Assembly: GCA_014379355.1 (NCBI GenBank)
Contig: JACMLX010000002.1
Coordinates: forward strand, 1-35,406
Source of the DNA: Gemmatimonadaceae bacterium
Lineage (GTDB): Bacteria; Gemmatimonadota; Gemmatimonadetes; Gemmatimonadales; Gemmatimonadaceae
DNA length: 35,406 nucleotides
Direction: 5' to 3'
Position numbers and translations under genes: made by a program. Numbering within the stretch: the stretch's first letter is position 1; each line of letters opens with the position of its first letter. Below the pieces are notes generated by a model. It was not told the origin of the DNA. It saw only the letters and a program-made list of their open reading frames with translations, and searched no databases. Shown here piece after piece: positions 23,146-26,810 of the stretch.

Positions 23146-23534
23146 TGTACACGATGCGCAACGTGTTGCTGGTGGCACTCGGTGGCGGGGTCGGCAGCGC
23201 GTTGCGCGCGATGCTGGTGTGGGGCACGGCCGGACGCGTCGGCACCGCGTTCCCGCTCGGCGTGCTGCTGGTCAACGTGCTCGGGTGTTTTGTGTTCGGC
23301 GTGGCGATCCGCTACGGGGTCGGATCGAGCGCAATGAGCGACAGCACGCGTCTCTTGATCACCACCGGTTTCTGCGGCGGCTTCACAACGTTCTCAGCCT
23401 TCTCGATGGATATCCTCGAGGGCCTCGAGCAGGGTCGGACCGTGATGATCACGACCTACGTCTGCCTGAGCGTAATCCTTGGCGTTCTGGCGATGGTGGC
23501 GGGCATGTCACTCGCGAAGACCCTGGCGCGATGA
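23145..23534 (+). CDS. crcB: Fluoride ion channel CrcB (Fluc)
   Basis: This is a 129-residue dual-topology fluoride channel that works as a dimer in the inner membrane. Four membrane helices are seen. Signatures are GGGVGSALRAM (residues about 13-23), PLGVLLVNVLGCFVFG with the conserved Asn, and GFCGGFTTFSAFSMD, the Na+/fluoride-pore motif. The ATG at 23145 overlaps the glycosyltransferase stop (TGATG), with a second Met at 23154. This tight coupling leaves no room for a dedicated fluoride riboswitch in front of crcB. Confidence 0.96.
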   Translation: MYTMRNVLLVALGGGVGSALRAMLVWGTAGRVGTAFPLGVLLVNVLGCFVFGVAIRYGVGSSAMSDSTRLLITTGFCGGFTTFSAFSMDILEGLEQGRTVMITTYVCLSVILGVLAMVAGMSLAKTLAR

Positions 23535-23588
23535 AGGCATCGGCACCTCCGAACGCGGTCCGCAATCTGAACTGACTTTTTTGAGCGA

Positions 23589-23818
23589 GGAGCGCACGGA
23601 GCTCACGGAGTGCGTCGCTTGCCACCCGTTGCGCCAGTCGTACGATCTCTCACTCGCTGTCGGGATAGGCTGAGGAGGCCGGAGAGCGCGCGAGGTGCGA
23701 CGCTCGGCGAAGCGCGAGACATCGCTGACTTTTGTTGGAACTGCTGTTCACAAAGCATCATCCGTGGCCGATGGGCAGAGCGTTGCAGCGCACGCACTCG
23801 GTGCGCTCCGTGCGCTCC
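23589..23818. repeat. MITE-like repeat copy A with 24-bp terminal inverted repeats
   Basis: The ends are inverted repeats: 23589-23612 (starts GGAGCGCACGGAGCTCACGG) and 23795-23818 (ends CGTGCGCTCC), matching at 22 of 24 positions by eye. The interior shares a block with copy B, beginning CGACGCTCGGCGAAGCGCGA (from 23699) and continuing through CATCGCTGACTTT, CTGTTCACAAA and GATGGGCAGAGCGTTG. Weaker similarity continues past the right end, to GACGCACT.CCCGGCC and CCCTATC near 23887. Copy A has about 75 bp (about 23623-23696) that copy B lacks. It has no open frame of its own. Confidence 0.75.
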
Positions 23819-24042
23819 CTACCCAACGCAGTTCAAGAAGGATGTGGGCAGCGAGTGTGACGCACTGCCCGGCCCCCCGCCCTATCCACGCAACGCAGTA
23901 CCGATGCCGCGCGCGTCTGGAACACATTCGCAGCTGGCGTAAAGCGCACGATGGCGCGTTGAAGGCGAGAAGAAGATCGGTGTGATAGCGTCATGCTCTC
24001 CAGCAATCGAACGTGTCTCCCCTCGGACGCACGCCTGGTCCA

Positions 24043-24066
24043 CACCCGCACCCGCACCCGCACCCG
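24043..24066 (+). repeat. Tandem hexamer repeat, CACCCG x4
   Basis: Four perfect copies of a 6-bp unit end 11 bp before the ATG at 24078. If the HExxH protein started at the GTG 23982 instead, the repeat would code for a Pro-Ala linker. Hexamer number changes would keep the frame. Confidence 0.8.
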
Positions 24067-24077
24067 GGGCCTACAGC

Positions 24078-24692
24078 ATGTACAACGTGTATCTCGCCAG
24101 TGGGCTTTCCATCGGCAACGCGATGCAGACCAGGAGCCTGAAGACGGACATCATCCTGGAGGTCAATCGCAAGCTGCAGGGCTATTTTGACCGCGTCATT
24201 CTCGCGCATGATGCGATCAGGGGGAGACCGAAGTACGGGCGCGCACTGGTGCAGTGGCTGGCTTTCGTTCCTGTCGTCCAGCCGCACGAGTTGCTGGTCT
24301 ACCTCCTTCCGCTGGGCTCGAAAATGGTCGAGGCCAAGAAGATCGGTGTGGGTGCTCCGCCGCCAAACCACGACGGCTTCACCGCGCTGTACGCCGGTGG
24401 CGCCTCGGCGGGATCCGAGGTCTACGACCGCTTCTCGAATGATGCGGCCTTGATCGCGAACCTGATGTTCCACGAGTTCATGCACAACAAGTTGAACCTC
24501 GGCAACACCCTGCACTCCCGCAACGGATTGGCCGCGGCCACCGTTACCGCCGCCACGCAGCTGACGAACGAGAACATCAACGACATGGCGGCGGCGTTGG
24601 ATGCCCGGCGACCGCAGTGGGTGGACGGAGTGGGGATCATCTCGGCCCGAAGCGCGATGTCTGACAACGATCCGGCCAAGGGCCTGTTCTGA
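24078..24692 (+). CDS. Unrecognised protein with HExxH zinc-peptidase-like motif
   Basis: This is a 204-residue protein with no signal peptide and no named family that I can recognise. The best clue is FHEFMHNKLNLGNTLH: His132, Glu133 and His136 form HExxH, and His146 ten residues on could be a third ligand, though this spacing is not the metzincin HExxHxxGxxH. The N-terminal half is mixed helix/strand (SLKTDIILEVNRKLQGYFDRVI, LLVYLLPLGSKMVEA); the tail is LTNENINDMAAALD...ARSAMSDN. The start is uncertain: ATG 24078 has CGGGG 8 nt upstream, while GTG 23982 would add 32 residues including a Pro-Ala run. It stands alone between two related repeats, which suggests an accessory gene. A metalloprotease role is inference only. 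Confidence 0.6.
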   Translation: MYNVYLASGLSIGNAMQTRSLKTDIILEVNRKLQGYFDRVILAHDAIRGRPKYGRALVQWLAFVPVVQPHELLVYLLPLGSKMVEAKKIGVGAPPPNHDGFTALYAGGASAGSEVYDRFSNDAALIANLMFHEFMHNKLNLGNTLHSRNGLAAATVTAATQLTNENINDMAAALDARRPQWVDGVGIISARSAMSDNDPAKGLF

Positions 24693-24999
24693 GGCCCGCG
24701 CGCGTCGCTTGCTTCCATCGGCGCCAGACGACAGATCGCTGACTGCTCTGGGTGAGGAGCGCGCCGAGGACACTGAGTGCGTGGCTTGCGACGCTCGGCG
24801 AAGCGCGAGACATCGCTGACTTTTTTTGAAACTGCCGTTCACAAAAAAATCATCGGTCCGCGATGGGCAGAGCGTTGTTCAGCGAGCACTCCGTGCACTC
24901 CGTGCGCTCCACGCCCAAAGCAGTTCACGACGGTGCGCGACGCGAGGAGTAGCGAGAACGACGCACTCCCCGGCCTCCCACCCTATCGCCCCCACGCAC
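24693..24999. other. Non-coding stretch holding repeat copy B
   Basis: There are 307 bp between the convergent HExxH and AGMO-like genes. No gene is seen. Apart from the repeat at 24756-24910, the right flank (to about 25000) still resembles the flank of copy A and runs up to the stop codon of the AGMO-like gene. Confidence 0.6.
24756..24910. repeat. MITE-like repeat copy B
   Basis: This is a 155-bp relative of the repeat at 23589-23818, in the same orientation. Its ends, 24756-24779 and 24887-24910, are imperfect inverted repeats (about 19 of 24 by eye), and the right end again closes in CGTGCGCTCC. The shared core starts CGACGCTCGGCGAAGCGCGA at about 24789 and includes CATCGCTGACTTT, GTTCACAAA and CGATGGGCAGAGCGTTG. 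The two copies bracket the HExxH gene as direct repeats about 1.1 kb apart. Confidence 0.72.
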
Positions 25000-26298
25000 T
25001 CAGCGATGCTGCGAGAGCGTACGAGCCCCGCGTGGCAGGCGCACGAGCCAGACCGCTGAAGCAAGGCTGGCGCCCAGCGCCAGCAGTGCGGTGACGCGAT
25101 ACTCAGCGCGCGCGATGAATGCGGAAGCCGCAACCGCGATGGTGGCGAGGCGCGCGAACTCGATACCGATGGCCCAGCTCCGGCCCTCGAAGAGCGAGCC
25201 GACGTTCGCGAGGCCAAGTGTCACGACGAAGAGCATCGTCGCGATCTCGTGCGATGCCATCGTGCCGGCGTTGACCAGAGTGAGATACGCGGCGATCAGG
25301 ATGAGGAAGAATTGTGCGGCGGCGTAGTACTGAAGTTGACGCGGCACGACCGGATCGAATTGTGGTGCATTCACGGGCCACGATGTCTTCGGGGCGCCGG
25401 CGCCCACGAGATCGGTCGGCCGGAAGCCGGGGTGGCCGAAGACGACGCGCCACTTGTCGCGCCAGTGCCTCGTGCGCCACGCATCCCGCATGATGTCGGC
25501 GAAGACATGCACGTTGGCCCACACCGGATTCCAGCTCTCGAGCGGCGTGGTGATGCCGTACACGACCGGCTCGACCTCGGGTTCGAAGGTGCCGAACATC
25601 CGATCCCAGATGATCAGCGCGCCGGCATAGTTCCGGTCGTGATACTGCGGATTCACGCCGTGATGCACCCGATGATGCGACGGTGTGTTGAGCCACCATT
25701 CCATGCCCCACGGCATCCGATCGATCTCGCGCGTCTGAATCCAGAACTGATACACGAGGTTGAGTGCATAACATGCCGCGAACATCGTCCACGGCAGACC
25801 GATCACGGCCAGCGGGATGAAGAACACCCAGCTGAAGACGCCATGCAATGCGCTCTGCCGGAGTGCGACTGTGAGGTTGTACTCCTCACTCGAGTGATGC
25901 ACGACGTGGCCAGCCCACAACACATGGATGGTGTGGGAGTAGCGATGCAGCACGTAATACGCGAGATCGACGAGCAGGAAGGCGACAGTCCAGACACCCC
26001 ATGCCGCCCAGTCGATGCCCAGCCGCCCGGGCATCGAACCATCGCCGAACGGCACCCGATCGATCCACGCCGGCGCGACACCGAACGACTGCAGCGAGAG
26101 ATGACGGGCGAACCAGACGTAGGCGCCGAGGACCAGCAACTTGGTGAAGACGCCGAGCAGCTGGCTGAGGATGCCGCACGACAGGTCACTGATCGAATCA
26201 TTGAGCCGGTAGACGGCGGATTGCCGACGGCGCGCGATCACCAGCTCGACGACGATGAGCAGGAAGAAGAGCGGAATCGAGGCTTCGATGATGGCCAT
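25000..26298 (-). CDS. Sterol desaturase/fatty acid hydroxylase family, alkylglycerol monooxygenase (AGMO/TMEM195)-like
   Basis: This is a di-iron membrane oxygenase of 432 residues with several membrane segments in both halves. The histidine boxes are HRYSH (His118, His122), HVVHH (His131, His134, His135) and HHRVHH (His208, 209, 212, 213). Around them are VLWAGHVVHHSSEEYNL, TALRQS-like VALRQSAL, LNTPSHHRVHHG, and NYAGALIIWDRMFGTFEPE with VVYGIT. These are very close to animal AGMO (TMEM195), which cleaves ether lipids, and the length agrees (about 445). The C-terminal third is hydrophobic, as in AGMO. The substrate here is unproven; other family members act on sterols, carotenoids or fatty acids. 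Its start is 26 bp from the divergent DUF411 gene. Confidence 0.87.
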   Translation of the reverse strand: MAIIEASIPLFFLLIVVELVIARRRQSAVYRLNDSISDLSCGILSQLLGVFTKLLVLGAYVWFARHLSLQSFGVAPAWIDRVPFGDGSMPGRLGIDWAAWGVWTVAFLLVDLAYYVLHRYSHTIHVLWAGHVVHHSSEEYNLTVALRQSALHGVFSWVFFIPLAVIGLPWTMFAACYALNLVYQFWIQTREIDRMPWGMEWWLNTPSHHRVHHGVNPQYHDRNYAGALIIWDRMFGTFEPEVEPVVYGITTPLESWNPVWANVHVFADIMRDAWRTRHWRDKWRVVFGHPGFRPTDLVGAGAPKTSWPVNAPQFDPVVPRQLQYYAAAQFFLILIAAYLTLVNAGTMASHEIATMLFVVTLGLANVGSLFEGRSWAIGIEFARLATIAVAASAFIARAEYRVTALLALGASLASAVWLVRLPRGARTLSQHR

Positions 26299-26324: not shown

Positions 26325-26810
26325 ATGGCCCATCACCTGACCCGCCGCGAGTTCCTGACCCGCGCTGCTACTGTCGCCGCCGCTGCCGCCTTCACGAGTC
26401 GCCTGGCTGACGCCGTGCCGCCCGCGACGCGCGTGACGGTCTACAAGGACCCGAACTGCGGCTGCTGCACCGCCTGGAACGAGGCGATGCGCAAGGCTGG
26501 CTTCCTGATCGACGTGCGTGACACGCCGAACATTGCGGCCGTGAAGGCATCGCTTGGCGTGCCGGAGGCACTCGCGTCGTGTCACACCGGTGTCGTGGCG
26601 GGCTACCTGTTCGAGGGCCACGTTCCACCCGATCTGGTGCAGAAAGTCCTCAAGGAACGCCCCGCCCTCGTGGGTTTGTTCGTGCCCGGCATGCCGAGCG
26701 GTTCGCCGGGCATGGAAGGACCGAGTCCGGAACGGTACGACGTGATTGCGCTGGGTCGCGATCAGAAGCAGGGCGTGTACGCGACGCGCATGGGTCGTAC
26801 GCAGGCCTGA
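26325..26810 (+). CDS. DUF411 metal-binding protein with Tat signal
   Basis: This is a 161-residue protein exported by the Tat route: TRREFLTRAATVAAAAAF carries the twin-arginine motif at residues 7-8. The mature part begins RVTVYKDPNCGCCTAWNEAM, where Cys45, Cys47 and Cys48 form the DUF411 CxCC motif in a thioredoxin-like fold. LGVPEALASCHTGVVAGYLFEGHVPPDLVQKVLKE (split over residues 80-115) and VPGMPSGSPGME follow as in the family. DUF411 proteins often sit beside copper-resistance genes, so periplasmic copper binding is likely, but no other copper gene is in this window. Only 26 bp separate its ATG from the divergent AGMO-like start. Confidence 0.92.
   Translation: MAHHLTRREFLTRAATVAAAAAFTSRLADAVPPATRVTVYKDPNCGCCTAWNEAMRKAGFLIDVRDTPNIAAVKASLGVPEALASCHTGVVAGYLFEGHVPPDLVQKVLKERPALVGLFVPGMPSGSPGMEGPSPERYDVIALGRDQKQGVYATRMGRTQA

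What the first reader, a model, noticed from the sequence alone, without database searches (positions are those of the whole stretch)
23589..24910. HExxH gene bracketed by two related repeats with terminal inverted repeats
Copies at 23589-23818 and 24756-24910 share a core and ends (22/24 and about 19/24 arm matches by eye) and lie in direct orientation on either side of one unrecognised gene. This is the layout expected for a cassette gained or lost by recombination or trans-mobilised by a transposase that knows these ends. It is the clearest accessory patch in the window.
Basis: partly seen in the sequence, partly recalled or inferred. Interest (0 to 1): 0.6.

Follow-up and report, generated by a model that had tools for sequence, protein, structure and literature searches.

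The report
Scattered hairpin repeats bracketing orphan gene
The two repeats are members of a family of at least 63 hairpin-forming DNA elements scattered between genes in this bacterium; that two of them bracket one orphan gene is what chance predicts, but their ends match those around a small GxxExxY nuclease-like gene, which may be what spreads them.

Summary
In detail: two related, directly oriented repeats with terminal inverted repeats bracket one HExxH ORF. The cassette reading is not supported. At least 63 copies are scattered over about 50 contigs, nearly all intergenic, mostly near gene 3' ends. With that number about one single-gene bracket is expected by chance; two were seen, the other around an ordinary TonB receptor. 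The two bracketing copies are not each other's closest relatives. In same-genus G002, crcB and the DUF411-like gene lie 26 bp apart, so the accessory block is the whole 2.8 kb (repeat, HExxH, repeat, AGMO). HExxH looks like a genuine but orphan gene. What lifts the case: the inverted 9-nt arrays at the repeat ends also bound a GxxExxY (PF13366) gene in this genome (1 of 467,042 background positions scores as high as its weaker arm). About half of 38 GxxExxY genes in this genome and relatives lie between inverted repeats (controls 3/212), and 6 of 7 array-rich genomes have arrays beside a GxxExxY gene. Most likely these are non-autonomous, REPIN/MITE-like elements with GxxExxY as candidate mobiliser; that mechanism is inferred, and RAYT transposases were not searched for.

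The parts
   Evidence: alignment of 20 copies and flanks; DNA fold, 0 of 100 shuffles fold as well
23589..23614 (+). left arm of copy 1: 9-nt-period array GGAGCGCACGGAGCTCACGGAGTGCG
23793..23818 (-). right arm of copy 1, inverted array
24078..24692 (+). orphan HExxH gene (204 aa from ATG; a GTG start at 23982 is also possible), motif HEFMHNKLNLGNTLH
   Evidence: GC by codon position; no Pfam, PHROG or NCBIfam family; no convincing relative in 395 phylum genomes
24702..24998 (+). repeat copy 2, whole unit; fills the gap between the HExxH stop and the AGMO stop; outermost left array degenerate
   Evidence: fold z-score -4.95
24756..24781 (+). left array of copy 2
24885..24910 (-). right array of copy 2, inverted
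25000..26298 (-). AGMO-like fatty acid hydroxylase gene (PF04116), part of the accessory block
26325..26810 (+). DUF411-like gene, right border of the accessory block (name from sequence likeness, no family search made)

Best explanation
The two repeats are members of a species-specific family of dispersed, non-coding palindromic elements (at least 63 copies, mostly about 300-430 bp), built of modules that begin with an array of 9-nt units (CACGGAGNN) and fold into one long hairpin. Shown: copy number, intergenic placement, gene-end bias, predicted hairpin form, and that two copies bracketing one gene is chance-like. Inferred: they spread as non-autonomous elements that settle between genes, much as REPINs or MITEs do, and they are recognised by their inverted arrays, most likely by a protein of the GxxExxY type (TIGR04256/PF13366), one gene of which sits between the same kind of inverted arrays in this genome. 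The HExxH gene came with, or beside, the accessory block between crcB and the DUF411-like gene, and is not carried by the repeats.
For: 63 copies mapped, 124 arm hits against 0 in the control. Convergent gene pairs 21, divergent 5 (P = 0.0025), no credible gene inside a copy. Both copies fold better than all shuffles. Family not found by BLAST in 20 relatives, two of the same genus (one marginal 41-bp match). The GxxExxY gene on contig C51 has inverted arms scoring 24.3 and 15.0 on the family's arm matrix; 1 of 467,042 background positions reaches 15. 20 of 39 GxxExxY loci examined (one counted twice, so 19 of 38) lie between inverted repeats against 3 of 212 control placements. The 7 genomes rich in such arrays all have PF13366; 0 of 23 lacking it are rich (P = 0.0014). 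In 6 of the 7 an array pair lies within 420 bp of a GxxExxY gene, about 0.14 expected.
Against: Half of the GxxExxY loci show no flanking inverted repeat; the other two GxxExxY genes in this genome have different, 8-nt arrays; in G017 none of three examined loci matched its abundant arrays. The association is not corrected for relatedness: genomes lacking both are mostly of other families. No target-site duplication and no orthologous empty site for a single copy was established.
Confidence: 0.6

Rival explanations
1. REP/REPIN elements mobilised by a RAYT (HUH tyrosine transposase) or TIRYT; the GxxExxY neighbourhood is incidental.
For: Placement between unidirectional and convergent genes, high copy number and hairpin doublets are as described for REPs, and RAYT-like genes flanked by long TIRs with TIR families are known (PMC3733652; PMC3116915).
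Against: Arms are iterated 9-nt arrays matching a GxxExxY element in the same genome; array-rich genomes all carry PF13366.
Confidence: 0.25
2. One reading: the two repeats define a unit R1-HExxH-R2 gained or lost by recombination or transposed as a composite element.
For: Direct orientation; orphan gene; block absent from same-genus genomes; an analogous gene-between-two-hairpins layout exists for GxxExxY in G014.
Against: About one such bracket is expected by chance; the two copies are not closest relatives; the block missing in relatives also contains AGMO; the only other single gene bracketed is a TonB receptor.
Confidence: 0.12
3. Fixed intergenic RNA hairpins (terminators or mRNA 3'-end stabilisers) kept by selection rather than spread by mobility.
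For: Bias to gene 3' ends and strong hairpins.
Against: Copies differ widely (mean 66% identity), vary in module number, and the family is not found in same-genus genomes beyond one marginal match; no Rfam match.
Confidence: 0.1

Closest known systems
REPINs / GTAG REPs with RAYT REPtrons, and TIRtrons (PMC3116915, PMC3733652)
   Same: High-copy, intergenic hairpins of two inverted repeats, mostly at gene 3' ends, with a gene-bearing relative bounded by the same ends
   Different: Much longer (mostly 300-430 bp), modular, ends made of iterated 9-nt units, and the associated gene is GxxExxY instead of a RAYT; RAYT presence not tested
GxxExxY protein family (NCBIfam TIGR04256, Pfam PF13366 PDDEXK_3)
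   Same: Own genome has three members, one bounded by the repeat family's arm type
   Different: No mobility role is described in the papers held (two passing mentions); the window's repeats carry no gene
23S rRNA intervening sequences with an S23/PF05635-type ORF (PMC4990558)
   Same: Small gene between complementary termini, proposed to have been mobile; PF05635 genes in this order lie between inverted short arrays
   Different: IVS sit inside 23S rRNA genes; the window's repeats do not and carry no gene
Integron gene cassettes with attC sites
   Same: Single gene between directly oriented imperfect inverted repeats
   Different: Copies are scattered over about 50 contigs in both orientations, not in an array

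Membership tests
Composite/trans-mobilised single-gene cassette | Flanking repeats are close copies of one another | tested here: not met
   R1-R2 75% identical; R1 (87%) and R2 (78%) are closer to the copy on C207
Composite/trans-mobilised single-gene cassette | Presence/absence boundary coincides with the repeats | tested here: inconclusive
   In G002 the absent block runs from crcB to the DUF411-like gene and includes AGMO; no strain with crcB-AGMO only was available
Composite/trans-mobilised single-gene cassette | Other copies bracket single genes more often than by chance | tested here: not met
   2 single-gene brackets observed, 0.96 expected, P 0.25
MITE / REPIN-like non-autonomous element | High copy number, non-coding, inverted terminal repeats, intergenic | tested here: met
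MITE / REPIN-like non-autonomous element | Gene-bearing relative with the same type of ends in the same genome | tested here: met
   C51 GxxExxY element, both arms; arms are alike, not identical
MITE / REPIN-like non-autonomous element | Target-site duplication or orthologous empty site | tested here: inconclusive
   Flank alignment shows no clear duplication; synteny with G001/G002 breaks near copies on C176
REPIN/RAYT system | RAYT (HUH tyrosine transposase) gene near or bounded by the repeats | not tested
Integron cassette array | Clustered, uniformly oriented attC-like sites | tested here: not met
   copies on about 50 contigs, both orientations
Integron cassette array | intI integrase | not tested
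   not searched

The most novel reading that the evidence does not exclude
GxxExxY (PDDEXK_3) genes are the acting gene of a so far undescribed class of miniature mobile elements bounded by inverted arrays of 8/9-nt units, and in several host genomes they have given rise to families of gene-less hairpin derivatives, of which the window's two repeats are examples.
Probability: 0.35. Interest if true: 0.75.

Novelty: new variant of a known kind. Interest (0 to 1): 0.45.

Why it matters
As a gene cassette the finding is ordinary. The repeats matter because they tie a widespread nuclease-like family of unknown role, GxxExxY, to species-specific hairpin repeat families, which gives that family a testable role as mobiliser of a REPIN-like system without a known transposase.

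Tried and rejected
HExxH homologues: none convincing in 99 relatives, 395 phylum genomes (the one weak hit, in G141, covers 51 residues and has a stop inside), viral contigs (37), genome contigs (42), plasmids, phages or PDB (72, E 0.63 only); single-sequence AlphaFold2 was useless (pLDDT 36). Rfam: no match (79). An exact scan of genome contigs for the arm found one match only, in a Streptomyces record, presumably chance. The idea that the C207 copy shows an empty site was dropped: that contig ends with crcB's 3' end at 98% for 120 bp and then diverges, so it is a recombinant or a chimeric contig.

Full report
Observation. Copy 2 is longer than reported, about 24702-24998, starting ten bases after the HExxH stop and ending two bases before the AGMO ORF.

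The family. nhmmer over fetched contigs gives 63 separate copies (62-480 bp as mapped; the shortest are cut by contig ends) on about 50 contigs. This is a lower bound, since some arm hits were not listed. Mean pairwise identity is 66%. A crude codon-usage gene finder places nearly all copies between genes, none with a credible gene inside; flanking genes are convergent 21 times and divergent 5 times (P 0.0025). One copy (C73) overlaps a predicted ORF. BLAST does not find the family in 20 relatives, two of the same genus, beyond one marginal 41-bp match.

The bracket. With 63 copies in about 4,080 gaps (gene density estimated from the window) simulation expects 0.96 single-gene brackets, P of two or more 0.25. 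Two were seen: HExxH here and a TonB-siderophore receptor on C99. R1 and R2 are 75% identical; R1's nearest copy is on C207 at 87%, and R2's is the same copy at 78%. That C207 copy lies at a contig end that may be chimeric, so R1's figure should be read with care. In same-genus G002 the crcB stop and the DUF411-like start are 26 bp apart, with no repeat, HExxH or AGMO; in G001 the glycosyltransferase gene is followed directly by the DUF411-like gene. AGMO itself has no counterpart in either. So the accessory block is 2.8 kb, and no genome here separates the bracketed part from AGMO.

The HExxH gene. Codon-position GC marks it as coding. It has no family and no convincing relative in any collection searched; a zinc-protease role is only suggested by HEFMHNKL...H.

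The GxxExxY link. The own genome has three PF13366/TIGR04256 genes, all between inverted 8- or 9-nt-period arrays. On C51 the arms have the same form as the repeat family's; on its weight matrix they score 24.3 and 15.0, against 1 of 467,042 masked background positions at 15 or more. Over this genome and relatives, 20 of 39 loci (one locus counted twice, so 19 of 38) have a flanking inverted repeat at a score reached by 3 of 212 control placements. Seven of 41 genomes have ten or more arrays; all seven have PF13366, and none of the 23 without it does. In six of the seven an array pair lies within 420 bp of a GxxExxY gene, 0.14 expected. This last test used patterns chosen after looking, allows three mismatches, and does not correct for relatedness.

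Mechanism. Shown: the repeat family, its predicted hairpin form, its placement, and ends of the same type as a GxxExxY locus. Inferred: mobility, and GxxExxY as the acting protein. REPIN/RAYT systems behave very similarly (PMC3116915, PMC3733652) and a RAYT was not searched for, so this rival stays open. The literature held mentions GxxExxY only in passing, but most subscription papers are not held, so novelty is provisional.

Noticed in passing
L054, L055, L056, L057, L063, L070 (relatives): PF05635 four-helix-bundle genes lie between inverted arrays of about 7-nt units, a parallel to the 8/9-nt arrays around GxxExxY genes.
   Followed up: partly
window 23503-23622 and C207:49365-49484 (L079 end): The crcB 3' end plus the first part of copy 1 recurs at a contig end at 98% over 120 bp, then diverges to about 82%: recombination between copies or a chimeric contig.
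   Followed up: partly
L129 2128-2237 and 10958-11067 (C176): Two related gene ends, about 81% alike over 120 bp, are each followed by a repeat copy, the copies 8.4 kb apart.
   Followed up: partly
L090 5034 (C52:19033): A lone array GGAGGTCTCCGAGGACACCGAGTGTG lies in what looks like a valyl-tRNA synthetase reading frame.
   Followed up: no
L050 1938-2240 (G006): Two tandem hairpin elements with CACRGRG-type arrays stand beside a GxxExxY gene.
   Followed up: no
window 25000-26298: The AGMO-like gene is accessory too: no match in either same-genus genome, best match 50% identical in G013.
   Followed up: partly
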